From a virus, in the IMG/VR virus record IMGVR_UViG_3300029263_000187, positions 1-28,991 of that record: 28,991 nt of DNA. The stretch is one strand, 5' to 3'. Shown in pieces: positions 3,612 through 25,090 of the stretch; the stretch's first letter is position 1; the number at the start of each line of letters is the position of its first letter. Under the pieces are notes generated by a model. That model saw only the letters and a list, made by a program, of their open reading frames with translations, ran no database searches and was not told the origin of the DNA. Made by a program: the position numbers and the translations under genes.

Positions 3612-3617
3612 TGTCAT

Positions 3618-3772
3618 TCCTCTTTCTTATATAGCCCCTCTAGCTGTCTATATATACATCGTCCACACATCTGTGACGTAAGTGACACAAAGTAAGGACA
3701 CAGCTAGTTGTGTAAACAGCAATCTGATTGTAGTGAGAGGGGGTTACTTCAAACTCTAAAAAGGAGACAGCA
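3618..3772. promoter_or_regulatory. Divergent control region between replication and recombination operons
   Basis: This 155-base gap separates genes read in opposite directions and must hold both promoters. An 8-bp perfect inverted repeat, CTAGCTGT at 3640-3647 and ACAGCTAG at 3700-3707, flanks the AT-rich core TATATATA near 3649. A second inverted pair is ACACAA (3685-3690) and TTGTGT (3708-3713), and a direct repeat GTGAC-GTAA-GTGAC lies near 3673. A leftward -10 box could be TATATA near 3650 or TATATAAG near 3627. No convincing -35 box was found in either direction, which fits an activator, a phage polymerase or alphaproteobacterial promoters. AAGGAG serves the rightward gene. Confidence 0.55.
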
Positions 3773-7658: not shown

Positions 7659-8096
7659 TTAGTCGCCCATCATCCAGTCATCCACGTCGAAACATGGGCA
7701 AGCCTTGTTACTGTATTCATTGTGGCCTGTAATGGTTGTGATCGTTGGGTGTTGTTCCTTCAAGTCTGCGATCAGCTTACGCAATGCTACGTCTTGCTCG
7801 GCAGTAAAGTTATCCTCGAAGATGTCGTGAGCCTCGCCGCCGCGCCCGCCAAGCAAGGAAACTCCGATGCTCGACTTATTTTTTCCTCGACAGTGCGCCC
7901 CGCTACGTTCAACAGGTCTAGCCGCACCGACTTCGCCCTTACGATTAACAGCAAAATGGTATCCGCATGTTGACCATCCGTTGTCCTCGACGTGCCACCT
8001 AGTCAATTCCTTGACAGCCTCATCGACTGGCTTGTCTTCGTACCACGACGGCCTAGTCGCAGTGCAGTGAATTATAATCTCAGTCAGTTTTCTCAT
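7659..8096 (-). CDS. Endolysin: T7-lysozyme-type N-acetylmuramoyl-L-alanine amidase (145 aa)
   Basis: This is an Amidase_2/PGRP-fold enzyme that cuts the amide bond between MurNAc and the stem peptide. With the start at ATG 8096, zinc ligands are H10 (IIIHCTA), H125 (TGHNEYS) and C133 (KACPCFD), and catalytic partners are Y46 (CGYHF) and K131. The spacing H-x5-K-x-C matches T7 lysozyme (H122, K128, C130), as does Tyr46. ATG 8096 is chosen because AAGGAG lies seven bases upstream. An in-frame start at 8249 would add 51 Ser/Arg-rich residues, but that stretch is occupied by another gene in a different frame. It has no signal peptide, so release needs a holin. Whether it also binds an RNA polymerase, as T7 lysozyme does, is unknown. 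Confidence 0.93.
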   Translation of the reverse strand: MRKLTEIIIHCTATRPSWYEDKPVDEAVKELTRWHVEDNGWSTCGYHFAVNRKGEVGAARPVERSGAHCRGKNKSSIGVSLLGGRGGEAHDIFEDNFTAEQDVALRKLIADLKEQHPTITTITGHNEYSNKACPCFDVDDWMMGD

Positions 8097-8256
8097 CGGC
8101 CTGCTCCTTGATGTGCTTTCTTTGTTTCTCGATTTCTTCGCGCTGAGTTTCGAGTTCAACGAATTGCCTGTCGATTTCATTAAGCTGCGGAAACCCGACG
8201 ACATTGTCGTGCCAAGCACTCGTAAACTCCCCACAATTCGACGTGTCATAGCTCAC
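8080..8256 (-). CDS. 58-residue helical protein with GTG start, hidden between holin and endolysin
   Basis: The frame starts at GTG 8256-8254 in a GTGA overlap with the stop of the upstream holin gene, preceded by an AAGGG site, and stops at TGA 8082-8080 inside the amidase start region. The sequence begins MSYDTSNCGEFTSAWHD and then turns into a strongly helical charged stretch (LNEIDRQFVELETQREEIEK...) with heptad pattern. The amino acid make-up is far more protein-like than the 51 Ser/Arg-rich residues read in the amidase frame over the same bases. The same GTGA/ATGA coupling links every gene in this cassette. A lysis accessory role is inferred from place. No membrane segment is seen. Confidence 0.7.
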   Translation of the reverse strand: MSYDTSNCGEFTSAWHDNVVGFPQLNEIDRQFVELETQREEIEKQRKHIKEQADEKTD

Positions 8257-8839: not shown

Positions 8840-9093
8840 TGCTCAAATCCTTCCTTCAAGCCTTCCATGATTTCCTTGACCGTTGGTCGGCGTTTAGTGT
8901 TGGGTGAGTATCGACATTGGAACGACTTGGGACACTCGGTATAACTGAACGAGGGGTAGTGGTATGCCGTCGTTCGGTTCGGGCCGAGATAGATGCAGAC
9001 CATCTCGTCCTGAATTTTTGTTTTCTTTGCGAGCTGACAGGTGACGTAGTCTGGATTTACCAGACCCGCGACTAAGATTGCTGTGAACCACAT
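8836..9093 (-). CDS. Small secreted-type Cys protein (85 aa)
   Basis: A short hydrophobic N-terminus (WFTAILVAGLV) with almost no positive charge is followed by a body with four cysteines, including CIYLGP and ECPKSFQC, which could form two disulfides in the periplasm. Small proteins with a YLGPN then CPxxFxC pattern lie beside holin genes in various marine phages; their role is not known. The start ATG 9093 shares one base with the giant gene stop (TGATG), with GGAGGG eleven bases upstream. It may be a Rz1-like or envelope-facing lysis factor; there is no lipobox, so an o-spanin is not supported. Confidence 0.65.
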   Translation of the reverse strand: MWFTAILVAGLVNPDYVTCQLAKKTKIQDEMVCIYLGPNRTTAYHYPSFSYTECPKSFQCRYSPNTKRRPTVKEIMEGLKEGFEQ

Positions 9094-12000
9094 CAGTCAA
9101 ATTTCCCTCCGAATTTATTAGAGTTGAAATCGCTGCTCCCAAAGCCGTCGCCAAATTTACCTTCCCCGGAGCCTTTTTTGCGTCCCGGCTTCTTGGCTTC
9201 TCCACCGACTGCATCGACGAAGGTTTCACGACCTGTAGGCCCACCATAGACACGACCAGCGATAGGTATGCGTCCGAACAGATCGCGCAACGTGGCCCTG
9301 ATCTTATCGTTAGGTTTGTCTTTCTCGTCAGAGAAGAAGTTGCTTGTCGCCTGCCCTGCGCCTGCTACCGCGTTGAAGCCCAGTTCAGCCGTGCCTACCT
9401 GTGGCCCAAAGACGCCAGACATGGTGCGTACAAAGCCGTACTTGCCGTTGTCTAGCTGCGCCGACGTGTTGTATAGCATCTCACCGATCAGGCCCATACC
9501 GCCCACCGCCAGTAAGCCGTCGAGATACCAGCCGAGTGCCGCGTCTACATCGTCACCTTCTTTAAGGCCCAGCACTTCGCCCAGCTTCTCACGATCCTTG
9601 ACCAGTGATCGCTTTCTGAAATCAGCCGAGTTCTCCTCGTCACCGCCACGCATTTGCACGAAGTCTTTTACGCCCACTGAAATGCTGCCCGCGCCTACGC
9701 CCGCTGTGAGCATGTATGCGAGAGGTGCGACGTTCCCCTGCTTGAACTCATCCATGATGTAACCTTGCAGCTTCATCATCAGCATGGGGAAAGACTTGAG
9801 TTGGAACATCATGCTGCCCCAAGGTGTCTGCGCCCACATAGGCACGTCGTTCGGGTTCGGAGTGAAGATCGCTTCGTTGGTAAAGCGCATCATCGCCATC
9901 TGAACTTGCATTTGTACGGCTTCGTTTTTGGGAAGCGTATCTATGCGGAACGAGCCATCTACCAGAAAGTCGTGAGGTGCGTTTTCGCCAGTAAGCCCGT
10001 AGCGTTCCAAATATCTAACGGCTGTTTTGTAAGAACGGCTATCAGTTTTACCTTTGCGCTTTAGTCGCATGGCCCTGTCTATCTCGGACTTGAAGCTCTC
10101 GAACCCGACCAAGCTGGCGACCTCTCGCATCGTATTCGTCCAAGGGGTCAGCAACGTCAGGTTAAAGAAAGCGTTTGCAAACTTCTGGTTCCCTTCGCCA
10201 GACATATGCACCATGCGTTCGTGCATCAAATTGTCTATGCCGACGCCAATGTTTTTGGCTGCTGCGCGGTAAGATGGGTCAGTGCTGTACTTGGCCCACG
10301 TCTTTGCAAATGCTCTCATGTTTCCGCTGCGAACCAATGGGAGTGCTACGTCTGGTATCGACGTGAACGTGGTGAAGCCAAGCAGGGATACGCTTGTGAA
10401 AGACTTGAGTAGACGGCTAACCTTGTAGCGTGCTTCTGTTCCGTCGCCGCCGTCGATGGGCTTCTTGTTTAACACGTTCATCATTGCACGCATCTTGGCG
10501 ATAGTCGTGCTGGGCGGGCGACCTTGGCTAAAGTCGATCAGGCCATTGACCACTGCCTCGACACGCTTTGCGTACTGCACGTTTCGAGTAACGTCGGCGT
10601 CTCCCATCTCCATCAGCATGTGGATCGCGGCTTGCTTGTTGTTGATGGCAGTTTTCGGGTCGCCAAGCATACGTTGCAGTCTACGGATCAACTCCTTAGT
10701 CTCGTCTGGGTTTAGAGTAAGACGGTTGATCATCACATCAGTTACGGTTGCCGAACCACTCTCGGTGGATACAGTGTCATTGGGGTTGTAGTCAGCTTTC
10801 AGAATGTTCACGGCTTCCTTGACGCCGCCACCATCAGCAATATCGACGTATGCAGTAAAGGCGTGTGCGTTCACGCCAAACTGTTCCGTCAGCACGCGCT
10901 TACGAATTGTCCTGTCGTAGTATTTAGCCAAGATACCTTGCAAGTCTTGCACGAGGAACCCGTCCATGAAGTCGTAGTCTCCGGGCTTCAGGGCCAGCAC
11001 ACGAGCGGCGAAAGGATTGTTCGACATAGCCGCTTGCAAGTCGCCATCGACTGTTGGGTCGCTGCCGCGAGTGAGTTTAGACGCAATCATGTCGGCTAGT
11101 TCACCTAGCTCCGTTGGGGTCATTCGATCATTTGGGTCGAAGTCGGGGTCTAATTGCGAGCGTCTGAGAAATTCGGACAGCCCAAGCTGGAATTTTTTAG
11201 GGTTGGCTAGGATCGCTTCGCTGTCCCAGATTTGAGGGACGTAAAAGTCACTGCCGAGCTTGCGAGCGTCACCAACTTTGATGCCCAGAGCTTTCATCTT
11301 GTTAAACTCATCGTTGAAAGCGTTGCCGATTTCCATTGCGACCCGCTGCTCTGCTGGTTTCAGCTTGGCAACAGCCCCTCTGCCTCTACGCAACGCTTGT
11401 ATGACGCGGGTGTGGCTTGCTGGCTGGCCTACATCTAGCGCACCCATTGCAAGGCCACGGTTGCGGCGGTTCCAGCGTTGGAAGTTGTTACCAGCGTCAG
11501 GCAGATCGTTCAGCTTTGCTATGATCGGCTGTAGCCTTCGTGCCAGCATCGCATCGTGTTTCTCAAATGTCCCAACACCGTTTACTGGTTTGATCTGATC
11601 GCCAAACCAGTTAGCACCTAGCTGTCGCATGAGGCTTGAGTTTTCGCGGAAGAAATTTTTGACCGTTGACCACTTAGATATTGTTTGCACGTCGTCGGCT
11701 TCGATCTTGTGCTGATTAAATATTTTCTTCGTGATCTTTGTTATCGGCGCAGGCACACCCATACGACGAACTTCGCGTGCGACACCCACAAACTCTGCGT
11801 TTTTGAGGGGCGCGTTCTTTACCATCATCTCCTCGACAACTTGACCTGTGAGCTTCATGTCACCGCCAAACCCTACTCCATCAAATAACAAAGCATCCGT
11901 TGCCTCAAAGCTGTTGGCTTCTTTGACCATGCTTGGATCAAAGACTACGTCGCCTTGGTCAGTGTGCATCGCATCGTAGCCTAAGTCTTTTAGGATTTTC

Positions 12001-15000
12001 TTGAACTTTGCCTGTGCATCAGCCTGCGACTTAGCCGTACCCGACGTAATCATTAGGCCATCTCGTCCATTGGTAAACGCATCATACATGCGAGGGCCGC
12101 TCACTGGTTCAATAAACCTATCGACTGCTGCCGTTACTCCGTCTGCATCCAGAATTTTTTTATCGGCAAGCTCCATAATAATATGGCGAACTGAGCCATC
12201 TTCCTCTGCGCCAAGAGAGTACGATTGCTTCGACGACACGTCTAACGGTGCTCTTATGCGTGCAAATACTGGCGCGACTTTTGTATCTACTGAGTTTGTC
12301 AGCCTGCTCAGTGCATCCCAGCGGCTTCGCTCCATCTTCAAGGTCATGTTGAGTAAACGACGCTCATCAAACGTCGGGTTAGCCTTGTTCGATAAGTCGC
12401 GGATTTGCTCTCGGTAAAACGCTATGTCTTTCATTGCGCTATCAATGTCAGGGGCCGAATTTTTTGGTGCGTCTGAATGGAACATGTCGTCTTCGACTTG
12501 CTTCTTGATCTGTGCCGCGCTGTAGTTTGTGTCTACTTCTTTGGTGGAGACGAGATAAACGCCTTCGCCGTATCTGCCGTTCTTCGTAACGGTCACGCCT
12601 CTAACAGCTTGATCTACTGACACGTTATACTGGAAGCTGTCCCGTAAGCTGGCTTCGGGCCTTAGACCCACGAAGTCTCTGATCGCATTGTCCAGTCGTG
12701 GGCTTACGTTGTCCAGATATGAGTTGGTGTACTTGCCAGCTACAGACGGGTGAACAAGTGTCACGCCCTCTGGATTGATTACCATGCCTAAGATTTCGTG
12801 CTTGTCGCGCTTTGCTTTATGAAGATCAGCGACGGCCATACGGCGCACTTCCATCTTGCGCTCTTTCATTGACTGCGGCTGTAGTAGCATGCCATCCAGT
12901 ATTTGTACGGCATCGTCGATTTGGAACTGCAACGCTTCAGTCTGCGCTGTCTGGAATAAGTACGGCATATCTGCCGACGCAAATTCCTCGGTGGGTGATG
13001 CGACCTCGACGAACACGCTATCAACTGACTTGGTGCTAAGTCTTGAAAACTTTGCTTTGAGATTATCTTTGTCAGCTTTTTCCAAGGACATTATACCCTG
13101 CTGCTCATCACGAGAGCGCATTGCAAAAGTAATGTTGTATAAACTGTCAAACAGAGCCTTTCGGTGTGGCGCAACTTCGGCGTCGTAACCTTTCGAGTCT
13201 AAAATATTGATATAAACATTTCTTAGTTCGTTAATCTTGGTTATTTCTTTAGCCATACCGCGCAATGATCTACGTGCTTCGTCATAGTTTTCGCCTTGTG
13301 GCAGCACGACGGTCTCATCGCTGTATTCCATAGCCAATGGGTCGCCACGCAAGATTGCTAAGTCGAACTCATTTATGGTTTCTGCGCTCTCATCCAAAAT
13401 ATCCTGTGGGTCTTCTGCCCCTTTGATCTTTCGCACCAACTTAATGAACAGGTCGCGTGCAATACCCTGCTCTGTCTTGTCCATTCCCCGCACTGAAATA
13501 CGATCAGCAAAAGTTTTTATTGCAGGGTTCAGAGGATCGGTAGAAATTGGATCAGGTGCATCTGGTACTGTCGCGCCATGTTTGCGGCCATAGTCGAGCA
13601 ATGCCAGATTGAAGTCACTAGGGTCGGCTTCAAGTGCCGCCATAGTCTTTGTTCTAAGTGCTTCGTCGTTACCGCGTAAGATTGCCAAGAGAGGGCTGTC
13701 GTCTGCTTCTAGCTGTGCAAGTTCTTTGCTGCTGTCTCTTGTTGTAAACGTAACTCGCGTCTTTAACTCGTTGATCGCTTGCGCTAACGCTCCCATGTTA
13801 TCTGCGCCCTCGGCCAAGTCAGCGTTGTGCAATGCGTTGGCTAATTCTTCTGCGCTGATTAGATTTTTTGACCGTGCATTGGCGTCAGCTAAGATCGCGT
13901 CTTCACCAACATCACGCCAGTCGATACCTCGCTTAGAAAGCTCCTCGACTATTTCAGAAACCGACTGCTCTATCGCCATAACTTTTCGGTTATTTTTTAT
14001 TGCTGCGTTTCTAAACATAGCAGACTTAGGCGGCAGGGTTTCGACGTAAGCCGCACCTGTGTACTGGTCGATAGCAATTTTCTTGCGCTCAGTGCGCGGC
14101 ATTGTGCGCTTAAACATTCCCGCGTATTCACCAACGGCCCGTTGCATTGCGACTTGTAGGTCAGAGGACAGGGCGTGAAGCTGATCAACTACGGCTTCGT
14201 CGAGACCTTCATACGCCGACTTGCTCTGTGTGAGCATACGCTCATATAAAGACTGAACATCACGAGCGGTGTCTGTTGTCATCTCCCTGTTTATTGCTTC
14301 CGCTTGGGCTGCATCTGTAGGGTTCTGGCCTGACAGAGATTGCCCGACTTTACTGTCAGCTTCCTCGGAACGTAGTCTTTTCAAAAACCCGTGTATTTTG
14401 TACTGGGCCTGCATGACATCTTCGAGGATAGTCTTGCCGCCTGTCTTGCTTCTCGCGTAGTCGAGTGCCTGTATGCGAGCCGACCCGCTTTCTGGGTTGC
14501 CCGGAATAGCCTTGTGGAAAGCCTCGCCCTTTACGCCACCGTATTCACCGTACAAAGACTTAGCTATTTTCTCTAACTCAATAGCAAGCGCGAAGCTGTC
14601 GCCCAGCCCTCTCGGACTTGCCATCTTAGAGATTTGCAAGTCTCTGATGCGCTCGTCGAGAGCGACCATCTGTCTAGCCGCGAACTGAGCGGCGGGCATA
14701 ACGTCGTTGCCGTAGGAGAACTGCGCGTCCTTGCCATGCTCTATGCCCATCTGCTCCAAGCCAGCAAACTTAGACAGACCTCTTGTCGGAGCACCCGTCA
14801 AAGGATCAATTTCTTCTTCCGGCAAGAATTTCTTAAACAGGTCTGCTAGGTCGGCATCGACTGACATAGTCTTGCGGCCCATTAGATAGTCGAACAGTGC
14901 CTTACCGAGCTTACTAACCTTGTGAAATACCTCGCTTAGTTTGGAGCCGGGAACGCGGAGAGCGTCAGTCTGCAAGACGTAGCCTAAAAACTGATTGGCA

Positions 15001-18000
15001 AAAAATTCCTGGGGGTTAGTCGCGGCATTTGAAATAAGCGACTTATCAACCATGCCACGCGAAAGCATGTCGAAATCCAACGCCCCGTTGTCGTCATAAA
15101 ACTTCTCCATAGACGACCAGAACTTTTGACGATCACCCTCGTCGAGAAGGTTGTCGTAAATCCAGTGGCCCATCTCGTGAACCAACTCCATCGCCATTGG
15201 GGAAGACCGCTCTTTAGTCGCGTCCTTGCTGCCAACATCCACCTTGATCGCGTTTGTGTTTGGATCAAACGCAGGGCCGTCTGTAGACTTCACAAGCACA
15301 GGTGCTCGGCCACCGTTGTATGCTGCCATGCGCTCTAAAAAGTCTACGGCAGTTTGCACCTCGCGTTGCGGGTATCCATCAAACATGGAACGCAACTTGT
15401 TCATGGCAAAACCTATAGTCGTAGTAGGTTTCTTGATGCCATTTGGCACGTTCGATTTAAGCACTCGTGCTGCTGCGGCTCTAGCTGTAGCGTACCGCTT
15501 CAAACCAGCTAAGGTTTTGATGTCGCCCTGCCAGTCCAACGTCTCTATGCGTTCGACGTAATTAACCAGATCGCCAACGAAGTTTAATTCCTCACCCTGT
15601 CGCTTGAAGAAATCTCTGTCTGCATCAGTCAGTTTTAGCTCGTTGCCTTGAACGTCCTCTAGCTTACTGGCTCTGTTCTCGCGCTTGCGGTTGCTCTGCA
15701 CCTTGGCAGACATGCCCCGCTTTCCTTTGGGTACGTCATGCCCGATCAGGCCATTACCGTTCTGATCTAAGAACACATCGTCCAAGTTCATTGGGAAGAA
15801 TGTTTCCTGTGCGGTAGAGCGGCCCCCGCCTGCCTGCACATGCCCGATCACATATTTTACGTCAGAACTTAGGCCCAGCATGTCGCCAATATTTTGCGGC
15901 TGTCTGCTATCGCCTGTACCCTTCATGCCCGCTTGACGAACTATGCCAGCCTTCTTAACCTTACCGCCTACGTCGAGAAATTGGACTGCAAGCTGCCGAC
16001 CATCGGGCAAGTCATCAAAGTCTGCTGCCGTCCAAGTTAATACGTTTTCTGGGTCGTTCTTAACTGGAGGGTTTTCTTCTGGAGAGCTGTCAACTGTCTC
16101 GGCTTTAGTCGGCGTCTCGTTTTTGTAAGTCTCAGTCTTAGTGTGATCGACTTGTACGTGGGGCGCACCTTCTGCCGACTTCTTGACAGCAAAGCGTTCA
16201 CCTTTCGACTGAAGTTGTATCTCCTCAATCTGACGATTAAATATCCGCACTAAGTTTTGCTTTAGGTCTTTTGCCGTACTGAATGTAACCTTGAAGCCGT
16301 CGGGGTGTTGGATGGATGCGTTGCCGTTCTTCGCCACGGAGAAACGGCCCAACTCTTTGCCGTCAATTTCTAGCCTGATCGCGCCATCTGCTTTCTGCCT
16401 ATAGTATTTGATGTCATTGTTAAGATCGACTTCAACACCGGAAGGGGTAGTCGCAATGAGCGGTTGCCTCTTAACGCCAACTGGCTTTGTTGGGGCTTCC
16501 TTTACGATTGATAAGTCTTGAACCTGTTGGTTCAAGCGGGCCATTGCGTCTAATAATTCTGCTGATGTTAGCTCGCCGTTCTGCGCCCTCGCCATCAAGG
16601 TTTTATTTGCTTCGATCATTTCCTGTTTAGCCGCTTGGGTAAGGGCCAACTGATTTACCTGAGTATTTACTTGCTGCCGCTGATCGGGGGTTGGCTCGCT
16701 GCCATACAGGTAGTCGTAAGCCGCGTTACCTTCTGCACCTAATTGGTCTTTGCCATTTGAACGCTCATTGAACTCAATGGCGGCTGCTTCATTTGAAACA
16801 TCAACCTCGTAATTTGGGTCTTGCTCGCCGTAAGTGCTGTTCTCGTAGTCGTACATTCCGTCTTTAACTTCGGCTAAGTATCTCCTTCTAGCCGCACGCT
16901 GCTTGCCCTGCTTGGTGAAGGCGTGCATGTAGATAGCGTTCGCCTTTTTCTGGTCTACCTCTGTGCCTGCTCTCTGGTGATGCGCCGTCAGTTTGTTTGC
17001 CTGCTCACGCATTGAGAAAAGCAAGTTCATGTAGTCTATGTCGTCCCTAGTCAGGCTCTTGCCGACTGCCTTTAACCCTGCTTCTTGCTTTAGCAAGGCT
17101 GCATAGCGGTTAGATATTTCACGGTTTGCTTTTTTGATTAGCGTTGCGCCACGGTTTTGGCTATCGACCTCGACTTCGTTTGCAAACTTTTGCTGTTCGG
17201 TGGACGACTGTAGGTCTGTACGCTCTCCCTTTAAGCCGCCAATTAGTGTTTTGGATTGTGAGCGATTGATCGCACCGACTTCGGCAATGTTATTTCGTGC
17301 GTATTGCGAAGCTGCAAACAACCTGTCTTCGGCTTCCGTCAGGGTAATTTTTATTCCCTTGTCGTCTTTAGACTTAGTCGCTTTAAATTTATAAGTCGCC
17401 CCTCCGTCTTTATTACGCAAGGTGGAGACTGCTCGCTGCAAGCTGTCGATGAGTTCGATGTGATAGTCTAGGATTTGGATGCGGTCTTTGTTGCGAACAG
17501 CCTGAATTTCGTCTCTCATACGGACTTGCGTACCACGCTCGATTTTTGCGCGGTTCATTTCGTCAAGATGTGCGTAGCCTGCAAGTTGCTTTTGCCACTG
17601 GCCCTTGGCGTCTTTCTTGTAGCCAGTACGCACTAGCTTGCCCGAAAACCCCTTGGCTCCAACCTTTTTTAAGATCCCTTGTATCTTGCCGTTAGGCTCA
17701 TATATGCCTTGGCCGTCACGAATTTGTGAGCGTCCCATGTAGTCAGCAAGGCCAGTGTCTTCGTGAACGCTAGTGTCTTTTGTTAGTCGCATACCGCGAG
17801 ACACGATCTTGATCGTGCCGTCCTTCTTCGCATTTAAACGAGAAATTTCTGTGTCGGCTGCAACAATAAGGTCGCCAATGGGGATGTCGTTGCGGCCCTT
17901 CATAATCACTTTGGCGTTGCTAGTCTTGGCGTATCTGCCACGAACCTCACGCAGTTTTGCCAAGTTGACGTAATGCGCTGAGATTAACTTTTGCTCTGCG

Positions 18001-21000
18001 CTGGACGGCTGCTGGCCCTTTGTCAGATTGTACCTGAACGTCTCCATCTCAACGAGATTACCGTCTGCACCGCGCACCATAATCGTGCCTGCTTCTTGCG
18101 TAAGGCTGCTTCTATATTTGACAGGCAGCTTCGCGTATGAGCCGACGTATGCTTCGCGGGCTGTACGCAGATCAGCAATGCCGTCTTTGATTTCTCTAAT
18201 CCGGCCATTCAGCATAGCCTCATTGCGCTCGACGAACCCGTCTCGCCCCGCCGCCATTTTGTCCAGCTTCTCGTAGTACAAAGCTGATGCTATTTTCTCA
18301 GCTTTAGGCTGGTCGTATCCTTCGTCTAAGGAACGCTGTAACAAATAGTCTTTGAAGTTTAAAAGCTCCACGTTAAGCGTGTCGTCCAGCAGGGTTTGGA
18401 AGTGTGCAAACCGACCATCGGTATCGGACAGCCCCTCAGTCGCAAAGTTGCCAGACGCCAAGGCGCGTGCTCCCCCCTTGACGTTCATGCCCCAAGGCTT
18501 TTCACCAGACGGTGACGCCATCTGGCGTTGTGGCAAAGGCATCGTCTCATCAGATAGCTTGGCGTCAGCGATGTCCTTCATTCGCTGCGTTAGTCGCCTT
18601 GCAAATGTGGGGCCGTAAAGGTTAGACGCGGCGGTGAAGAAGCCGCCTTCGCCTTCGGGAACTTCGCCTTCCATTATCTCAGTTATTTTTGCCGTATGTA
18701 GGTCTGGATTGGAAAGCATACGCTCTTGCGCGTCTAGTGTGGCCTTTATAATCTCAGGGCTTGCTCCCTCTAAGTGAAGCTCTAGGAATGATTTGTCGGT
18801 GTTCGGAATGTTGTCCGTATTAAACGCCGCATTGATGACGCCTTCACCATTAGTCAGGTCATGTAAAATTCTGCCAAGTTGCGCTTCACCCATGCGCCGA
18901 TAGAACACTTCGACGAACTTTTCTTTCTTAGCTGCTGTGCGGCCATCTACTTTTTTATAGGCGGCAATTTCCGCGTCTGAAATGCCAATGCTCTCTAGGT
19001 ATTCGAGTACGTCGTTATTGCCCTTAAACGCTTCGAAGACCTTTACAGGGTTAGCTTTATCGGCCTGACGCTGTCCCTCTATTTCTTCGGCTTCTACACG
19101 CTGCGCCGCAAAACTTATGGCCTCGTTTTCTTCCGCTATAGCGCGGGCCGCAAGTGCTTCGTCGCGCTTGATCTGATAGTCGGAAGTTTCGGTGTCGATT
19201 ACCTTATCGTTGTCGAGCCGTCGCTGCTTGAGTTCGTCGAGGATCGCTTGCTCTTTTGCGATCTCGTCACGTAATGAATTTTGTTCGGCCATCAACCTTT
19301 GGCGAGATTCGACGAGGATAGGGACGACATCTTCTTCTGTTTGATCTGTCCCTGCAAACTTGTCACGAAACCGTTTTCTAACTTCGGGCGGCGTGTCTGG
19401 TTTTAAGCCGCCGCCGTCCAGTACCGACGACATTTCTACGTCGTCTACACCTTCTGACCGATCCACGCCCTCCATATCAAATTCGCTTTTGGTAAACAAA
19501 GAGCCAGACTTGTTTTCAATTACGGCTTCTTGAGCCGCGACTGCGTCGTCCATTGCGTTCTTACGGCCCTGATTGACCTTTAGTCGCTCTGCAAACTCAG
19601 CGTCATCGTTGTTTAAGTCTTGGTCTGGTCGTTGCGGCCCCATCTTGTTGTCTGGGCCACCTTCAATCGGGTCGCCTACTACAGATTGACCGCGACCAGC
19701 TAGGGTGCCGTTACTGCTAAAGCTCTGCGGATCACTAAAATCTGCTGCCTCGTCGCCTGAAAGTAGGCCACCATCTCCGGGGCGTGCGCCTTCATTGTTA
19801 GTGTCGATGAAGTCGTCTACTTTCTCTTGCACAGTCTTGTTGCGAACAGTGCCACCGCCATCATTACCCGTGGGCTGTGCTGCATCTGAGTCGTAGCCAA
19901 TCAACTTCATGTCTTTGTTAGTCTGATCGGTGATTAATTTGATTTCTTGAATGACATCTGGCGTTGTAATCTCGTCGTCAGACAGAAACTTTTGCAGTCT
20001 GTTGCTGATGTTCGATGATGCGTTCCGCATTTTGCGAGCGCGTTCATTTAACCCATTAACTTTGTCTAAGTTCTTAGTCTCTTTGAGAGCTTCCGCGTCT
20101 AACTCTGACGCCAATCGGTCAAGGTTTACTGCTTGCTGTGCGGCTAAATCTAAAACGTCTTCTTCACCTAAGTCTAGCGCGTCAACGTCGCTGCCTGACA
20201 TTCTGCCGTCTGCGGTTGGCGTGTCTGGGTCTAAGTCGTCGGCAGACAAAGCTGCTGCGCCACGAGTGCCGGACGTTCTAGCGTTTACCGCCGCTTGCTG
20301 ATCGACAAGTCGCTGTGTGATTTGCTGCGCTTCGGTTAGCTCTGCTTCTGGGGCCACCACTGGCGGTAATAGTTCGTCCACTTCGGCGTCAGCACGCACT
20401 GTTGCCCGCGCTTGGCTGCGCCCGTCGATCATGCCCATTTCTGTCGCGCTACGACCTTTGGCAAACGGGTTTGGTGCCACGGCTGCTACGCCACCCAGCA
20501 CGGCACCCATGCCCCCGCCTATAAGTGCGCCACCGCCGACTGCCATTGCGCCTTGTGTGAGGCTGTAGCCGTCTTGTAGGCCCAGTTCTGTGTTCCTAGC
20601 TTGTATGCCTGCGTCCAGTATGCCCTCGGCCACGCCAGAGGCCGCGCCTTCGTACAACGCGCCTTTGTAAACGCCAGACTTGAGCGCAGCTTTTGTCGCC
20701 GTTTTCTTCATGCTTGCCGCGCCAGCGGCGGTCAGGGCTGTGCGGCCACCTTTGGCGATCACTTGCTTTGCGGCTTCGCGTGCCGCAATTCCACCTGAAC
20801 CAAAGCCGAGCAAGTTGATTGGGTCAGCTAACGTCGCAAGCGCGTTGGTTGCAAACCCCTGCCAGCCATCGCCACCATCTTCGTAAAAGTCTGGCATGGC
20901 GTCGAAGGTGGTCTGTAGTCGAGCCAGACGTGTCGTCTGTTCGTCGTTTTGGGTGTTAGCATCATATAAGTCACGGCCAATAGATACGAGGTTCATGTTG

Positions 21001-21251
21001 CGCCAGCGGCGGTCTTCCATGAAGTAATCTTTGGCTTCGTCTACGGTGTTAAATGTTTTGCCGTCGCGCTCATAGTAGTAGTCGTACACGTCTTGCACAA
21101 AGTCTTGTCGTGTAAATACGTTTTTAGAATTACCTTTGTTCAACCCAGCGGCATAATCTAATCCCGTGCCATCATTAGTTGATAGCTGCTGTGCTGCTGG
21201 TGCGCCCATTGCGCTGATCTGTGCGTATAGTGCTTTTTGTGCGTTGCTCAC
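9093..21251 (-). CDS. Giant polyvalent virion protein: metallopeptidase, ART-like and LPD38-like domains (4052 aa)
   Basis: One uninterrupted frame of 12.2 kb starts at GTG 21251-21249, with GGAG seven bases upstream. The N-terminus (about 1-230) is helical, followed by a Gly/Ala-rich hydrophobic stretch (232-259) that may enter membranes, and a long charged coiled coil (about 640-735). A zinc peptidase site HEMGH (H2025, H2029) has a likely third ligand E2082 (NPQEFFANQF), as in gluzincins. Around 2894-2900 YGEGVYL, then VFARIRAPLD and LGYDAM (3091 on) with VVFDPS, match the layout of ADP-ribosyltransferases in polyvalent proteins. The C-terminus (about 3805-3850, MMFQLKSFPMLMMKLQ) resembles LPD38. 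It follows smaller virion-type genes and precedes lysis, so it is probably an internal ejection protein like T7 gp16, but enlarged. No lytic transglycosylase or N4-type RNA polymerase motif was recognised. Confidence 0.85.
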   Translation of the reverse strand: MSNAQKALYAQISAMGAPAAQQLSTNDGTGLDYAAGLNKGNSKNVFTRQDFVQDVYDYYYERDGKTFNTVDEAKDYFMEDRRWRNMNLVSIGRDLYDANTQNDEQTTRLARLQTTFDAMPDFYEDGGDGWQGFATNALATLADPINLLGFGSGGIAAREAAKQVIAKGGRTALTAAGAASMKKTATKAALKSGVYKGALYEGAASGVAEGILDAGIQARNTELGLQDGYSLTQGAMAVGGGALIGGGMGAVLGGVAAVAPNPFAKGRSATEMGMIDGRSQARATVRADAEVDELLPPVVAPEAELTEAQQITQRLVDQQAAVNARTSGTRGAAALSADDLDPDTPTADGRMSGSDVDALDLGEEDVLDLAAQQAVNLDRLASELDAEALKETKNLDKVNGLNERARKMRNASSNISNRLQKFLSDDEITTPDVIQEIKLITDQTNKDMKLIGYDSDAAQPTGNDGGGTVRNKTVQEKVDDFIDTNNEGARPGDGGLLSGDEAADFSDPQSFSSNGTLAGRGQSVVGDPIEGGPDNKMGPQRPDQDLNNDDAEFAERLKVNQGRKNAMDDAVAAQEAVIENKSGSLFTKSEFDMEGVDRSEGVDDVEMSSVLDGGGLKPDTPPEVRKRFRDKFAGTDQTEEDVVPILVESRQRLMAEQNSLRDEIAKEQAILDELKQRRLDNDKVIDTETSDYQIKRDEALAARAIAEENEAISFAAQRVEAEEIEGQRQADKANPVKVFEAFKGNNDVLEYLESIGISDAEIAAYKKVDGRTAAKKEKFVEVFYRRMGEAQLGRILHDLTNGEGVINAAFNTDNIPNTDKSFLELHLEGASPEIIKATLDAQERMLSNPDLHTAKITEIMEGEVPEGEGGFFTAASNLYGPTFARRLTQRMKDIADAKLSDETMPLPQRQMASPSGEKPWGMNVKGGARALASGNFATEGLSDTDGRFAHFQTLLDDTLNVELLNFKDYLLQRSLDEGYDQPKAEKIASALYYEKLDKMAAGRDGFVERNEAMLNGRIREIKDGIADLRTAREAYVGSYAKLPVKYRSSLTQEAGTIMVRGADGNLVEMETFRYNLTKGQQPSSAEQKLISAHYVNLAKLREVRGRYAKTSNAKVIMKGRNDIPIGDLIVAADTEISRLNAKKDGTIKIVSRGMRLTKDTSVHEDTGLADYMGRSQIRDGQGIYEPNGKIQGILKKVGAKGFSGKLVRTGYKKDAKGQWQKQLAGYAHLDEMNRAKIERGTQVRMRDEIQAVRNKDRIQILDYHIELIDSLQRAVSTLRNKDGGATYKFKATKSKDDKGIKITLTEAEDRLFAASQYARNNIAEVGAINRSQSKTLIGGLKGERTDLQSSTEQQKFANEVEVDSQNRGATLIKKANREISNRYAALLKQEAGLKAVGKSLTRDDIDYMNLLFSMREQANKLTAHHQRAGTEVDQKKANAIYMHAFTKQGKQRAARRRYLAEVKDGMYDYENSTYGEQDPNYEVDVSNEAAAIEFNERSNGKDQLGAEGNAAYDYLYGSEPTPDQRQQVNTQVNQLALTQAAKQEMIEANKTLMARAQNGELTSAELLDAMARLNQQVQDLSIVKEAPTKPVGVKRQPLIATTPSGVEVDLNNDIKYYRQKADGAIRLEIDGKELGRFSVAKNGNASIQHPDGFKVTFSTAKDLKQNLVRIFNRQIEEIQLQSKGERFAVKKSAEGAPHVQVDHTKTETYKNETPTKAETVDSSPEENPPVKNDPENVLTWTAADFDDLPDGRQLAVQFLDVGGKVKKAGIVRQAGMKGTGDSRQPQNIGDMLGLSSDVKYVIGHVQAGGGRSTAQETFFPMNLDDVFLDQNGNGLIGHDVPKGKRGMSAKVQSNRKRENRASKLEDVQGNELKLTDADRDFFKRQGEELNFVGDLVNYVERIETLDWQGDIKTLAGLKRYATARAAAARVLKSNVPNGIKKPTTTIGFAMNKLRSMFDGYPQREVQTAVDFLERMAAYNGGRAPVLVKSTDGPAFDPNTNAIKVDVGSKDATKERSSPMAMELVHEMGHWIYDNLLDEGDRQKFWSSMEKFYDDNGALDFDMLSRGMVDKSLISNAATNPQEFFANQFLGYVLQTDALRVPGSKLSEVFHKVSKLGKALFDYLMGRKTMSVDADLADLFKKFLPEEEIDPLTGAPTRGLSKFAGLEQMGIEHGKDAQFSYGNDVMPAAQFAARQMVALDERIRDLQISKMASPRGLGDSFALAIELEKIAKSLYGEYGGVKGEAFHKAIPGNPESGSARIQALDYARSKTGGKTILEDVMQAQYKIHGFLKRLRSEEADSKVGQSLSGQNPTDAAQAEAINREMTTDTARDVQSLYERMLTQSKSAYEGLDEAVVDQLHALSSDLQVAMQRAVGEYAGMFKRTMPRTERKKIAIDQYTGAAYVETLPPKSAMFRNAAIKNNRKVMAIEQSVSEIVEELSKRGIDWRDVGEDAILADANARSKNLISAEELANALHNADLAEGADNMGALAQAINELKTRVTFTTRDSSKELAQLEADDSPLLAILRGNDEALRTKTMAALEADPSDFNLALLDYGRKHGATVPDAPDPISTDPLNPAIKTFADRISVRGMDKTEQGIARDLFIKLVRKIKGAEDPQDILDESAETINEFDLAILRGDPLAMEYSDETVVLPQGENYDEARRSLRGMAKEITKINELRNVYINILDSKGYDAEVAPHRKALFDSLYNITFAMRSRDEQQGIMSLEKADKDNLKAKFSRLSTKSVDSVFVEVASPTEEFASADMPYLFQTAQTEALQFQIDDAVQILDGMLLQPQSMKERKMEVRRMAVADLHKAKRDKHEILGMVINPEGVTLVHPSVAGKYTNSYLDNVSPRLDNAIRDFVGLRPEASLRDSFQYNVSVDQAVRGVTVTKNGRYGEGVYLVSTKEVDTNYSAAQIKKQVEDDMFHSDAPKNSAPDIDSAMKDIAFYREQIRDLSNKANPTFDERRLLNMTLKMERSRWDALSRLTNSVDTKVAPVFARIRAPLDVSSKQSYSLGAEEDGSVRHIIMELADKKILDADGVTAAVDRFIEPVSGPRMYDAFTNGRDGLMITSGTAKSQADAQAKFKKILKDLGYDAMHTDQGDVVFDPSMVKEANSFEATDALLFDGVGFGGDMKLTGQVVEEMMVKNAPLKNAEFVGVAREVRRMGVPAPITKITKKIFNQHKIEADDVQTISKWSTVKNFFRENSSLMRQLGANWFGDQIKPVNGVGTFEKHDAMLARRLQPIIAKLNDLPDAGNNFQRWNRRNRGLAMGALDVGQPASHTRVIQALRRGRGAVAKLKPAEQRVAMEIGNAFNDEFNKMKALGIKVGDARKLGSDFYVPQIWDSEAILANPKKFQLGLSEFLRRSQLDPDFDPNDRMTPTELGELADMIASKLTRGSDPTVDGDLQAAMSNNPFAARVLALKPGDYDFMDGFLVQDLQGILAKYYDRTIRKRVLTEQFGVNAHAFTAYVDIADGGGVKEAVNILKADYNPNDTVSTESGSATVTDVMINRLTLNPDETKELIRRLQRMLGDPKTAINNKQAAIHMLMEMGDADVTRNVQYAKRVEAVVNGLIDFSQGRPPSTTIAKMRAMMNVLNKKPIDGGDGTEARYKVSRLLKSFTSVSLLGFTTFTSIPDVALPLVRSGNMRAFAKTWAKYSTDPSYRAAAKNIGVGIDNLMHERMVHMSGEGNQKFANAFFNLTLLTPWTNTMREVASLVGFESFKSEIDRAMRLKRKGKTDSRSYKTAVRYLERYGLTGENAPHDFLVDGSFRIDTLPKNEAVQMQVQMAMMRFTNEAIFTPNPNDVPMWAQTPWGSMMFQLKSFPMLMMKLQGYIMDEFKQGNVAPLAYMLTAGVGAGSISVGVKDFVQMRGGDEENSADFRKRSLVKDREKLGEVLGLKEGDDVDAALGWYLDGLLAVGGMGLIGEMLYNTSAQLDNGKYGFVRTMSGVFGPQVGTAELGFNAVAGAGQATSNFFSDEKDKPNDKIRATLRDLFGRIPIAGRVYGGPTGRETFVDAVGGEAKKPGRKKGSGEGKFGDGFGSSDFNSNKFGGKFD

Positions 21252-21338
21252 GACGGTACTCCAGTTTCCGTGCTATGTTGGAAACATCATATCGTCGTAA
21301 AGGGTATAAGTCGTACCCCGCTTAGAAGTTAGTACATG
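21252..21338 (-). promoter_or_regulatory. Leader of the giant gene with two small hairpins
   Basis: This 87-base gap is the longest break in the right-hand operon. Read on the minus strand it holds GGGTA...TACCC followed by TTT, a weak terminator-like fold, then GTTTCC/GGAAAC (21264-21285), a 6-bp hairpin that ends two to three bases before the GGAG ribosome site at 21259-21262. A direct repeat TACGAC flanks the first hairpin. It may tune translation or transcript level of the giant gene; no clear -35/-10 pair is seen. Confidence 0.4.
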
Positions 21339-24176
21339 TCAGTATCCGTGGTGATCATTCACTGGGATTAGGTTTACCCTCGACGCACGATCACGCCTTG
21401 CTTGTAGTATCACCATCATTGCTTTTCTTGCTTTTTTATTTTCAGGGCCGTTGCCTAATCGAATATGACCCGTTTCAAGTTCTTCTAAAAAGTCCATCAT
21501 GTTTCTTGGTTCGTGGTCGAGCTTTCTTGTATAACCGTTATGATCTTGCGGTTTGTCATAACGGTAATAGCCCCTCTGGAACTCGTCCAGCCAATTCTTA
21601 TTCACACGGTTGACCCATTTTGCGCCGTCGGGGTCTAAACCTATCGCGTCAAACACTTGGGCGTCAGCAGTGGTTCCGACAAGATTGCTGCCGGTGCCGC
21701 GCATACTCTCCCAATACGGTTTTTTATACGGACTAAGTAGTGTATAATCTGGCATTACGCCTGAACCCTTTTTGGCCGTTACGACAGGGGCATTTTCCGT
21801 TCCGCTAGAAACCAATTCCTCTGCGTTTTTAAGTTTAAACCCAGTCGGTGATGAAGGGTCACGCACGTACACGCCCCCCACTTGGAATTGCATATTTTCT
21901 GCACGCGCTATTATGTCGTCGTCGCTGTCGATTACCGTATAGCCTTGCTTGCCACGGTTCCAAATTAAAAAGTCCGGCTCTTTGCTAGGTTTGGCTGCGC
22001 GAACTTTGTCACGGAGATCGTCTAGCATGACACGCATCGCGCCCAAGCCTGCCATTTCATCCTGCATGTTCAGAACTTCACCGACTTGAGGCGTTTGCAA
22101 GTCTATTCTTATCACTTTGCGCTGGGTTTCTATAGTATCAATAAGCGTGTTAAGCTGTGCCTGCGCGGCTGCGATTGTTGCTGGGTTATCGTCAGGGCTT
22201 AGAGACTGCATTGCATTGATGTAAGGCTGGATCATGCTTGCAAGAATATTTACTTTATCTGACGCATACTCCGTTACGCTTTGCCCCGGCTTCACTAAAC
22301 TTTTTCCGTCCATTATCGTAGCAATGTAAGTGCGCTTGAAATCTGCACGATAAGTCTCTTTACCCACTAAGCCAAGATTACCAGCCACTATGTTTATCGT
22401 CTGATTAAACTCTTGCAAGTCCTCTGCGGGATCAATGTCTTTGTTACTAATATCTCTGGATATAGCTTCAATAATGTCATCTATTTGATCGGCTTGTATG
22501 CCATAACTTGCGTTCAATACTTGCAAGACTTTGTACGCAATACTGTCTTTGCCGCCACTTGACTCAGCAAGTGCAGCAAGTCGATTAGTAACCGCTGCCT
22601 CATTTTCTAAAACAATTTTGTCTGCTGTCTCTGTAGCCGTCGTTACAGTCTGGTCATATACGCCAACACGGGCGTTACCAATTTGATCCGAGAACCACGC
22701 CCAGTCGTTCGCCCAGCTTTTATTGCTTGGGTCAGCTTCGTTCATACTCGCGTATGGAGAAAGATTGTTTTCTCCTCGAAGGCGGTTCACCTCAGTGAAA
22801 ACCTTTTCCTTTGTGTTTTGGTCGTAAGGGCGTTGAATAAGTTCAGCCATATAGGTTTGCCCGCCGTTGTCGTCCACTCTCGCACGGACAGCATTTTGGT
22901 AATTGGTTACGTCAACACGGGCTTCTAATATGTTGTCTCGTGTAGAGGCAGAAGTTAAGGCCGTCACGATCTGTTTTTTTAATAAGTCTTTTGCGGTTAG
23001 AGTATTTCCCTCGCCCATGTCTTTCCACCGCACACGCGAGAAGTCGAACCCTAAAGTACCCATTAGCGTATCGGCATGTTCTTCAATCGTTTCATCACGA
23101 TCCAGCCAGTCGTAGTCTGACTTTGGAGCAAGGGTTATTGTACTGAGCAATTTTGCTGTCTGTTCGTTTTCGTAAGTCGTAAGTGCGTTTTGCGATCCTG
23201 AGAGCACAATGTTGCGAATTACGGCCATACCAGAAGCACCCAATTCTTTTGGGTCGATGTTGTATTTATCTAAAATGCTAATAACTTCTGCGTTAAGAGC
23301 CTCTCCGTTGCTGTAAAGGTCTTTGTTGAAATCAAGCCCGCGTGCATACGTCTGTGCTTTGCCAAGGTTGCCAGACTGCCACAAAACATAATCAGATGTT
23401 GCGTTTTCTCTTACGCGGTCAAGAAAGGTGGGATCGACTGGCACATCGGATGGAAGCGAACGAGTGTATAAATTGACTGCGTGTGCGATAGCGTCGGCCT
23501 TGACTGTAATATCTCCAAATATTTTTGCGTGCTGATCGCCTATTGCGGTTGTCGCTTTCTCATGGGCGTTACGAATGTAGGTGCGTCGGTTGGACTCCAT
23601 ATTTGCACGAAGTTCTTCTTGCATCCACAATGGCGATTGAGAGACAACCCCGTCAATGCCCTCTTGAGTTACATATTGCGACACGTTGCGCGATGCCATG
23701 TAGTTTGTAATCACTTTTTCGTTCGTAAGCCTCAGAAATTTCTTCGCCTGCTCTGGGCCAAACTTTTTAACAATAGCGGCGAACGGGCCTTTCTGTGATA
23801 TACTGTTCCACGTTTTTGTGTCGTTAGGATCAGAACCCTCGTAAAAAGACATAACCGATTGCATGTTGGCAATAGATGCGCTTTCGTTTCCAAGAACAGT
23901 CGAGCGTTCGTTTTCTTGTTTGTCGGCTTGTATTGCGCCTAGTCGAGATGACGTTTCATTGATGACGTTCTCAGACGGCAAACTCTTTCCGTAAAAGAAA
24001 TCACCGCCCGCTAGGTTCCGCTTCATGCCCTCAAGGTCTTCGACTGACGCATCTACGCCAAGCTCAGACTGCGTCTTCACGTAGCTGTTGAACGCGGCCA
24101 TGTTGTCGCTACGTCGTTTCTGTATGCGATCTTCTTTGTTGTCGCGTGCCTTGAGAAAAGCTGCACCTATACGCAT
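21339..24176 (-). CDS. Internal virion-type protein (945 aa)
   Basis: A long, mostly helical, charged protein with no signal peptide or clear membrane segment. The N-terminal 60 residues are rich in Lys, Arg and Asp (MRIGAAFLKARDNKEDRIQKRR). The C-terminal part turns to a beta-type pattern (GKQGYTVIDSDDDI, GGVYVRDPSSPTGFKL) and a basic tail. No enzyme motif was recognised. Its size, helical content, low similarity and place between a 304-residue protein and the giant protein parallel T7 gp15 in the ejection core, so an internal virion or DNA-ejection role is inferred. The start ATG shares one base with the upstream stop (TAATG), showing tight coupling. A tail-hub or other structural protein is the alternative. 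Confidence 0.7.
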   Translation of the reverse strand: MRIGAAFLKARDNKEDRIQKRRSDNMAAFNSYVKTQSELGVDASVEDLEGMKRNLAGGDFFYGKSLPSENVINETSSRLGAIQADKQENERSTVLGNESASIANMQSVMSFYEGSDPNDTKTWNSISQKGPFAAIVKKFGPEQAKKFLRLTNEKVITNYMASRNVSQYVTQEGIDGVVSQSPLWMQEELRANMESNRRTYIRNAHEKATTAIGDQHAKIFGDITVKADAIAHAVNLYTRSLPSDVPVDPTFLDRVRENATSDYVLWQSGNLGKAQTYARGLDFNKDLYSNGEALNAEVISILDKYNIDPKELGASGMAVIRNIVLSGSQNALTTYENEQTAKLLSTITLAPKSDYDWLDRDETIEEHADTLMGTLGFDFSRVRWKDMGEGNTLTAKDLLKKQIVTALTSASTRDNILEARVDVTNYQNAVRARVDDNGGQTYMAELIQRPYDQNTKEKVFTEVNRLRGENNLSPYASMNEADPSNKSWANDWAWFSDQIGNARVGVYDQTVTTATETADKIVLENEAAVTNRLAALAESSGGKDSIAYKVLQVLNASYGIQADQIDDIIEAISRDISNKDIDPAEDLQEFNQTINIVAGNLGLVGKETYRADFKRTYIATIMDGKSLVKPGQSVTEYASDKVNILASMIQPYINAMQSLSPDDNPATIAAAQAQLNTLIDTIETQRKVIRIDLQTPQVGEVLNMQDEMAGLGAMRVMLDDLRDKVRAAKPSKEPDFLIWNRGKQGYTVIDSDDDIIARAENMQFQVGGVYVRDPSSPTGFKLKNAEELVSSGTENAPVVTAKKGSGVMPDYTLLSPYKKPYWESMRGTGSNLVGTTADAQVFDAIGLDPDGAKWVNRVNKNWLDEFQRGYYRYDKPQDHNGYTRKLDHEPRNMMDFLEELETGHIRLGNGPENKKARKAMMVILQARRDRASRVNLIPVNDHHGY

Positions 24177-25090
24177 TAACCAATCCCCGCCGCTGTTTTC
24201 AGACTGCCGACTTTGTCACCCGCCAAAGCCTCTAGTGAAGCCAAGTATCTAGCGTCTGAACCTTGCCCTGTGTCTGTTCGATCAGTCCTGTTGCCAAAGC
24301 CGTAGCCCATATTCGGGGCCAGCTTCTCGCTAAAGTTTGCCATAGTGTCACCGAATACCGCTTGGCTGTCATTGAAGTTAGCTGATGTCGTGTCAGCAAA
24401 ATTCGTCATGCTGTTAGAGGCATTTTGCATATTAGCAGACGCATTGTTGGTCATCATACCGCTTTCCAAAGTCGCGGCCTTGCCAAAGACATTGGTGATC
24501 TCGTCGAAGGTTCCTTGCCGACTAGAATTTACCGCGTCAGCATAGCCCTTGCTGCGGTTGATAGCCGCGTCAAAAGCGGTCTGGTCTATCGTGCCAAGTT
24601 GATCCGCGCTCCTATTGATTAACGCCGCCTGCTCGTCGGTAAACTGCGTAGACCTGTCCATGCCACGACGTATCGCAGACGCCTCAGTCTGAGACGCGAC
24701 TAGGTTTACTGTATCGTAGTAGTCGTCCATCATTTGACCACGGAACGACTGGTAGTTTTTGGTGATTTCCGCGCCATCCACTGTCGCTCTAGGGCCAAGT
24801 TTAGCCATCGACGACTTGAGTGCTGTGTCCATTGTCCCAATACGCTGAAGTATGCGGTCACGGTACGCGGCTTCGTCGGCTGCTGATTGCGCGGCCATTG
24901 ATAGCTGCGCCTCGGCAACTTGCCGCTGCATGTTTGCGACTTCTTTCATCGCGGCTTCATCTACTTTGCTCTGTCGATACGAATACCCCATATCGAACAG
25001 AGAGCCGTAGGCTTGCGTGCGAAATGCGTCCTTGCCCTGCGGATCATCGTAGTAGCTAGAAGCTACCTTCCCAAGTGTTTCTCCGAACAT
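24176..25090 (-). CDS. Internal virion-type helical protein (304 aa)
   Basis: The start ATG 25090 has AGGAG six bases upstream, overlapping the stop of the previous gene. The N-terminal 110 residues are long helices rich in Ala, Gln and Glu (EVANMQRQVAEAQLSMAAQSA). The middle carries YDTVNLVASQTEASAIRRGMDRSTQ. The C-terminal third is rich in Asn, Ser, Met and Phe with repeat-like NMQNASNSMTNFADTTSANFN, typical of flexible virion proteins. By place and size it parallels T7 gp14, the smallest ejection protein, with the 945- and 4052-residue proteins after it. No motif gives an activity. A scaffold or tail component remains possible. Confidence 0.65.
   Translation of the reverse strand: MFGETLGKVASSYYDDPQGKDAFRTQAYGSLFDMGYSYRQSKVDEAAMKEVANMQRQVAEAQLSMAAQSAADEAAYRDRILQRIGTMDTALKSSMAKLGPRATVDGAEITKNYQSFRGQMMDDYYDTVNLVASQTEASAIRRGMDRSTQFTDEQAALINRSADQLGTIDQTAFDAAINRSKGYADAVNSSRQGTFDEITNVFGKAATLESGMMTNNASANMQNASNSMTNFADTTSANFNDSQAVFGDTMANFSEKLAPNMGYGFGNRTDRTDTGQGSDARYLASLEALAGDKVGSLKTAAGIG

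What the first reader, a model, noticed from the sequence alone, without database searches (positions are those of the whole stretch)
9093..21251. A 4052-residue single-gene virion protein filling over 40 percent of the window
One unbroken 12.2-kb frame with its own ribosome site encodes a protein larger than T7 gp16 (1318 aa) and larger than the N4 virion RNA polymerase (about 3500 aa). Peptidase, ART-like and LPD38-like segments are strung together with long helical linkers. Polyvalent proteins of this kind are known from conjugative elements and phages (Iyer and colleagues), but this domain set in a presumed ejected virion protein looks uncommon. The ejection role is inferred from gene order.
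Basis: partly seen in the sequence, partly recalled or inferred. Interest (0 to 1): 0.8.

Follow-up and report, generated by a model that had tools for sequence, protein, structure and literature searches.

The report
Giant multi-domain phage ejection protein
This marine phage gene encodes a single 446-kDa protein that most likely rides inside the virus particle and is pushed into the bacterium with the DNA, carrying an intact-looking protein-cutting enzyme and a partly worn-out ADP-ribosylating enzyme between two ejection-protein ends, and its start signal is buried in a conserved RNA hairpin.

Summary
In detail: window 9093-21251 (-) is one unbroken 4052-codon frame, and 51 distinct complete relatives (2935-4126 aa) keep it whole. 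Of these, 49 share one domain order: N-terminal ejection domain, zincin metallopeptidase, ADP-ribosyltransferase (ART) fold, C-terminal virion domain.

The virion role no longer rests on gene order alone. The N-terminus matches pelagivirus 'internal virion protein D' (E 6e-38). The C-terminus matches internal virion proteins and virion PHROGs, and its only significant PDB fold hit is T7 core protein. The phage belongs to the CRP-810-type marine family (2024), whose isolate carries this protein as three ORFs.

The zincin site (HExxH plus a downstream Glu) is invariant in every aligned member. The ART H-Y-D triad is kept in most of the family, but the His is Asn in this window's clade, so its ART may be inactive. 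No RNA polymerase, LPD38 or lysozyme domain was found: an N4-vRNAP-like polyvalent ejection protein without the polymerase.

New: the start codon sits in a conserved RNA hairpin (51 leaders, mean z -3.0; 141 control starts, 0.04), absent from Rfam, perhaps a translation throttle. Packaging, ejection and catalysis remain unproven.

The parts
9093..21251 (-). Giant gene, 4052 aa, 446 kDa, GTG start
   Evidence: unbroken in 51 distinct complete relatives
21247..21301 (-). 5' leader hairpin: outer stem TTTACGACG/CGTCGTGAG spans the start codon, inner stem GTTTCC/GGAAAC lies just upstream of the GGAG
   Evidence: folding z -3.2 in the window; 51 leaders against 141 controls; covariation in A7; no Rfam match
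21254..21270 (-). Conserved 17-mer CGGAAACTGGAGTACCG containing the ribosome site; once in the window
   Evidence: exact in 18 loci (several being copies of one contig), only at this gene start
20352..21251 (-). N domain, residues 1-300: homologous to the N-terminus of pelagivirus 'internal virion protein D' (gp16-type)
   Evidence: tblastn to 2e-15; hmmsearch 2e-57; hhalign 99.9%, E 6e-38
14712..15554 (-). Zincin metallopeptidase domain, residues 1900-2180
   Evidence: HExxH 76/76 and downstream Glu 75/75; AF2 model pLDDT 79.5 with the expected strand and helix order; BFVD matches to large polyvalent proteins, E to 6e-15
15165..15179 (-). HEMGH zinc-binding motif, residues 2025-2029
15006..15008 (-). 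E2082, predicted third zinc ligand, in NPQEFFANQF
11892..12704 (-). ART-fold domain (ART-PolyVal type), residues 2850-3120; N2876-Y2899-D3093 in place of H-Y-D
   Evidence: PF18760 in 10/30 members, best 3e-8; residue counts; AF2 model of 2820-4019 confident over this part
9252..11804 (-). C domain, residues 3150-4000: best conserved part, homologous to internal virion and virion structural proteins
   Evidence: phrog_16310 1.2e-8 and phrog_6958 1.4e-4 in the window itself; phrog_6958 in 25/30 and phrog_684 in 24/30 members; TL-2011b hhalign 99.1%, E 4e-19; Foldseek to T7 core protein 9jyy_I, E 8.5e-4
21339..24176 (-). 945-aa gene directly upstream, position of the T7 gp15 / N4 gp51 gene
   Evidence: position only; no sequence match to T7 gp15, N4 gp51 or CRP-810 gp37
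24176..25090 (-). 304-aa gene, position of the T7 gp14 / N4 gp52 gene; matches CRP-810 gp38
   Evidence: hhalign 94%, E 1e-7 to CRP-810 gp38

Best explanation
The gene encodes the large ejection (internal core) protein of a CRP-810-type, podovirus-like marine phage. It is the functional counterpart of T7 gp16 and N4 gp50 and carries enzymatic cargo in the polyvalent style. Proposed mechanism: a few copies are packaged above the portal. On adsorption they thread out through the tail as flexibly linked beads before the DNA. The N and C domains, which hold the only membrane-like segments, help build the inner-membrane part of the ejection channel. The zincin then cuts either the polypeptide itself, releasing parts, or a host protein. 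In most of the family the ART domain would modify a host protein early in infection; in this clade its His is Asn, so it is probably a binding-only or altered enzyme. A hairpin hiding the start codon keeps synthesis of this costly, low-copy protein down. Shown by computation: frame, domain order, homology of both ends to internal virion proteins, invariant zinc site, ART His loss, leader structure. Inferred: packaging, ejection, proteolysis and its target, translational throttling.
For: Intact in 51 complete relatives, 49 with order N-Z-A-C. N end = pelagivirus internal virion protein D. C end = internal virion and virion structural families and T7 core protein fold hit. HExxH 76/76 and Glu 75/75. 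PF18760 in 10/30 members. Eight window genes match CRP-810 genes, in the same order and orientation for the replication block. Membrane-like segments only near residues 241, 3621, 3841 and 3904. N4 vRNAP precedent: giant, multi-domain, beads on a string, ejected (PMC12633501). Iyer 2017 precedent: N4-type RNAPs fused to MPTase and sometimes ART (PMC5512222). Leader hairpin statistics.
Against: No proteomics. T7 gp16 itself is not matched by sequence by either end (hhalign 0.3% and 12.9%), and the Foldseek hit is a single match with low TM (0.13) over a long helical stretch. The upstream 945-aa gene shows no detectable similarity to T7 gp15 or N4 gp51. No lytic transglycosylase domain was found. 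CRP-810 morphology was not established in the passages read.
Confidence: 0.75

Rival explanations
1. The giant is a virion protein whose zincin acts during assembly: it cuts itself or head proteins before or after packaging (as suggested for phage P1 DdrB), so shorter pieces rather than 4052 aa are ejected.
For: Zinc site invariant; long, poorly conserved linkers on either side could hold cut sites; DdrB is processed before packaging (PMC5512222).
Against: N4 vRNAP also carries an MPTase and is packaged uncut (PMC5512222). No conserved cut-site motif was looked for.
Confidence: 0.3
2. The giant is an early, non-virion effector or anti-defence polyvalent protein that merely sits next to the virion genes.
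For: Zincin and ART are typical of conflict proteins; the leader hairpin shows special translational control.
Against: Both ends are homologous to internal virion proteins; the gene occupies the last large slot of the morphology module next to lysis genes.
Confidence: 0.08
3. It is a tape-measure protein of a siphovirus or myovirus.
For: Long, helix-rich, single gene in the morphology module; the CRP-810 paper reports tail-chaperone and baseplate-related annotations in some subgroups.
Against: No tape-measure family hit in Pfam or PHROGs; both ends match podophage internal virion proteins; two enzyme folds between them.
Confidence: 0.04
4. The family is a cryptic N4-type virion RNA polymerase: the poorly conserved 300-1600 region hides a diverged polymerase.
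For: Same overall plan and size as N4 vRNAP; CRP-810 gp36 hits phrog_2206, virion RNA polymerase, at 5.8e-5.
Against: That hit lies at model positions 295-593, N-terminal to the polymerase core (residues 998-2103 in PMC12633501). No profile window or slice matches the N4 or RPP1 polymerase core. Residues 300-1600 are the least conserved part (0-9% invariant), unlike a catalytic polymerase.
Confidence: 0.03

Closest known systems
Roseobacter phage CRP-810 gp36-gp35-gp34 (OR671924; Wu et al. 2024, PMC11288001)
   Same: Colinear homologue over the whole length; same phage family and replication-gene synteny; same leader hairpin position
   Different: Annotated as three overlapping ORFs in shifted frames; about 800 aa shorter in all; ART His retained
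Coliphage N4 virion RNA polymerase gp50 and Schitoviridae relatives
   Same: Giant single-chain protein of a podophage, last large gene of the virion module, contains a zincin; one relative (RPP1) also has an ART (PMC5512222); weak zincin alignment with the HExxH in register
   Different: No RNA polymerase here; N and C domains not detectably homologous by pairwise hhalign; 550 aa longer
Pelagivirus (HTVC019P group) internal virion protein D
   Same: N-terminal 250 residues homologous
   Different: Only 1241-1281 aa; zincin, ART and C domain not detected in it
Escherichia phage TL-2011b 1004-aa internal virion protein (phrog_342/phrog_16310)
   Same: C domain homologous (E 4e-19)
   Different: No N, zincin or ART domain detected; it sits beside a separate lytic transglycosylase protein
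T7 gp16
   Same: Proposed role; Foldseek match of the C slice to T7 core protein
   Different: A third of the size, has a transglycosylase domain, no detectable sequence similarity

Membership tests
Podophage large ejection (internal core) protein | Homology to annotated internal virion proteins | tested here: met
   N end: pelagivirus, 6e-38; C end: TL-2011b, 4e-19, and virion PHROGs
Podophage large ejection (internal core) protein | Fold shared with a solved ejection protein | tested here: inconclusive
   One significant PDB hit, T7 core protein 9jyy_I, E 8.5e-4, but TM 0.13 on a pLDDT 67.6 model
Podophage large ejection (internal core) protein | Last large gene after two smaller ejection genes | tested here: inconclusive
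   Gene order fits, but the 945- and 304-aa neighbours do not match gp14/gp15 or gp51/gp52 in sequence
Podophage large ejection (internal core) protein | Packaged in the virion and ejected into the host | not testable with these tools
   Needs proteomics of virions and emptied capsids
Polyvalent proteins (Iyer et al. 2017) | Two or more disparate enzyme domains in one polypeptide | tested here: met
   Zincin plus ART fold in 49 complete ORFs; in this clade the ART lacks its His
Zincin-like MPTase | HExxH helix followed by a second helix with a Glu ligand, after a three-stranded sheet | tested here: met
   Residues invariant; model elements in that order
ART-PolyVal (PF18760) | H-Y-D active-site triad | tested here: not met
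   Window has N-Y-D; the family mostly has H (55 of 72 aligned residues), Y (71 of 74), D (66 of 78)
ART-PolyVal (PF18760) | Profile match | tested here: inconclusive
   10 of 30 members, best 3e-8; window itself not matched
LPD38 | Pfam profile match | tested here: not met
   No match at E<=0.01 in 30 diverse members
N4-type virion RNA polymerase | Single-subunit RNA polymerase core | tested here: not met
   No match of any family slice to the N4 or RPP1 polymerase core
T7 gp16 | Lytic transglycosylase domain | tested here: not met
   No SLT match
CRP-810-type phage family | Shared replication-gene synteny | tested here: met
   HJR, Prim-Pol, gp25, AAA ATPase, gp27 and PD-(D/E)XK match at 37-45% identity in order

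The most novel reading that the evidence does not exclude
A whole marine phage family builds its ejection machine and its early effectors into one giant chain, dosed by a start-codon-hiding RNA hairpin of a previously undescribed class, with the peptidase maturing the chain inside the host and, in one clade, the ADP-ribosyltransferase converted into a non-catalytic binding domain.
Probability: 0.25. Interest if true: 0.75.

Novelty: new variant of a known kind. Interest (0 to 1): 0.58.

Why it matters
It shows that the N4-style giant ejected protein is not tied to carrying a polymerase: a globally distributed marine family uses the same plan with a peptidase and an ART instead. It gives a cultured system (CRP-810) in which to ask how proteins of more than 300 kDa thread through a phage tail, and what injected peptidases do. 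The ART His loss gives a natural comparison between active-site-intact and altered clades. The leader hairpin is a testable candidate for stoichiometry control of ejection proteins.

Tried and rejected
Single-sequence Pfam and PHROGs scans of the full protein gave nothing; slices and relatives were needed. PDB sequence profiles gave nothing. Foldseek PDB of the zincin slice: no significant hit. LPD38: rejected. Hidden RNA polymerase: rejected. Tape-measure protein: disfavoured. The 945-aa gene as a detectable gp15 homologue: not found. Prophages in sequenced genomes: one scan found only a short contig in a Phycisphaerae MAG, probably a stray viral contig. An N-domain profile scan of viral contigs could not be run because conservation was too low. 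RNAalifold on the mixed SD-pairing leaders found no consensus because the sequences could not be aligned, so covariation was tested only on the nine closer ones. Literature searches for an earlier report of such a giant protein in marine phages found none.

Full report
OBSERVATION. The window is a 28,991-bp viral fragment (G000). The frame at 9093-21251 (-) is open for 4052 codons with a GTG start and GGAG site; it is 41.9% of the window and 446 kDa. It is not an assembly artefact. L002, from another metagenome, is 99.6% identical over 9,218 bp and reads through. Six relatives at 33-59% identity are unbroken at 4002-4114 aa. With profiles for four regions, 51 distinct complete ORFs of 2935-4126 aa carry both ends.

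WHICH PHAGE. Tblastn against named phages finds Roseobacter phage CRP-810 along much of the length. Eight window genes match CRP-810 genes, including Holliday-junction resolvase, Prim-Pol, AAA ATPase and PD-(D/E)XK nuclease in the same order and orientation. The window therefore belongs to the CRP-810-type family described in 2024 (PMC11288001), which notes 'internal virion protein D' in all subgroups but does not discuss the giant gene in the passages found.

ANATOMY. Conservation falls into islands: residues 1-300, 1900-2300, 2800-3100 and 3100-4000, separated by poorly conserved linkers. Of the 51 ORFs, 49 have the order N, zincin (Z), ART (A), C; two lack a detectable ART. N: homologous to the N-terminus of pelagivirus internal virion protein D (tblastn to 2e-15; hmmsearch 2e-57; hhalign 6e-38). 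C: the window slice itself matches phrog_16310 (1.2e-8) and phrog_6958 (1.4e-4); 25 of 30 members match phrog_6958 and 24 match phrog_684, both virion structural. TL-2011b's internal virion protein aligns at E 4e-19, and Vibrio phage CKB-S2 'putative internal virion protein 1' matches a relative. Foldseek of the 2820-4019 model gives one significant PDB hit, a T7 core protein (E 8.5e-4), with low TM, so it is supportive only.

ZINCIN. HExxH (H2025, E2026, H2029) is present in 76 of 76 aligned distinct sequences and E2082 in 75 of 75, although the slice is otherwise only 15-30% identical to the window in distant members. The AF2 model (pLDDT 79.5) has three strands, the HExxH helix, then the helix with E2082, the order described for polyvalent MPTases (PMC5512222). 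Hhalign to the single N4 vRNAP sequence is weak (43%), but its HELVH falls in register. BFVD's top hits are 'large polyvalent protein' entries (E to 6e-15).

ART. PF18760 is matched by 10 of 30 members, best 3e-8, and by CRP-810 gp35 at 7e-5. Iyer et al. define this clade by H in strand 1, Y in strand 2, D in strand 5. Across the family the first position is H in 55 and N in 13; Y is 71 of 74 and D 66 of 78. The N members, including the window, form one clade (12 of 13 leaves, support 0.89; the thirteenth has no residue aligned there). Loss of catalytic activity in this clade is an inference.

WHAT IS MISSING. No RNA polymerase, LPD38 or transglycosylase. The CRP-810 gp36 hit to the virion RNA polymerase PHROG is to that model's N-terminal part, outside the catalytic core.

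BROKEN COPIES. CRP-810 carries the protein as three ORFs overlapping by 47 and 29 nt in shifted frames, colinear with the intact protein. At the second junction the record holds a short tandem duplication. L066 is also in three pieces, and L147 and L155 are partial or split. Whether these are real or sequencing indels cannot be told here; intact copies are the rule.

LEADER. Every close relative has CGGAAACTGGAGTACCG directly before the start codon; it is found once in the window and in 18 loci only at this gene. The start region folds unusually well: 30 leaders, mean z -3.37 against +0.31 for 34 control starts. In a larger set, 51 leaders had mean z -3.0 (34 below -2) against 0.04 for 141 other starts in the same contigs (7 below -2; Mann-Whitney p 5e-17, related sequences not independent). 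In the window clade the outer stem spans the start codon while the GGAG itself is mostly unpaired; in others, CRP-810 included, CTCCAGT/ACTGGAG pairs the GGAG. On nine close leaders the structure pairs in 82.7% of cells against at most 43% when slid, with covariation 0.227 against 0.130 in shuffles (0 of 500). Several AT-rich members lack it. Rfam has no match. My reading is a translational throttle for a costly, low-copy protein; an RNase III site or a repressor target are alternatives.

MECHANISM. By homology of both ends the protein is most likely the large ejection protein. In N4 the equivalent 383-kDa protein is a chain of loosely linked domains thought to thread through a 35 A channel (PMC12633501). 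The giant here would do the same with a peptidase and an ART-fold domain as cargo. Packaging, ejection, cutting and dosing are inferred; the frame, domain order, active-site conservation, ART His loss and leader structure are shown.

NOVELTY. The kinds are known (ejection proteins, polyvalent proteins, N4-type fusions). New here: a family-wide order without polymerase or lysozyme, N and C ends related to two different podophage groups, a clade-specific ART His loss, and the structured leader. I rate it a new variant of a known kind.

Noticed in passing
window 21247-21301 (-), and the same position in 50 other leaders: Conserved RNA hairpin over the ribosome site and start codon of the giant gene, absent from Rfam; the stem sequence varies while pairing is kept.
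   Followed up: yes
leader region of L003, L008, L020, L027, L048, L066, L087, L089 and others, about 40-90 nt upstream of the giant's start: A GG(A/T)ACGAC box recurs near the end of the intergenic region or previous gene; possibly a second element or a paired partner of the start region.
   Followed up: no
L011 (CRP-810) 24050-24135: Short tandem duplication at the gp35/gp34 frame junction of the deposited record; the gp36/gp35 junction is also frame-shifted.
   Followed up: partly
window 27418-27870 and 27867-28322 (-): Two adjacent GNAT acetyltransferase genes in the virion module, both similar to CRP-810 gp40, which has one copy there.
   Followed up: no
window 25712-25755: 18-bp tandem repeat (2.4 copies) inside the 228-aa gene upstream.
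   Followed up: no
window 7659-8249 (-): Endolysin appears amidase-like by its sequence, whereas CRP-810 has a GH108 enzyme at the same place: a likely lysis-gene swap between family members.
   Followed up: no
residues 300-1900 across the family: The 3200-aa and 4000-aa forms differ mostly in the length of the N-to-zincin linker, about 800 aa.
   Followed up: partly
L099 (JASLZV010000098.1): A C-domain relative on a 6.9-kb contig filed under a Phycisphaerae MAG, likely a stray viral contig.
   Followed up: no
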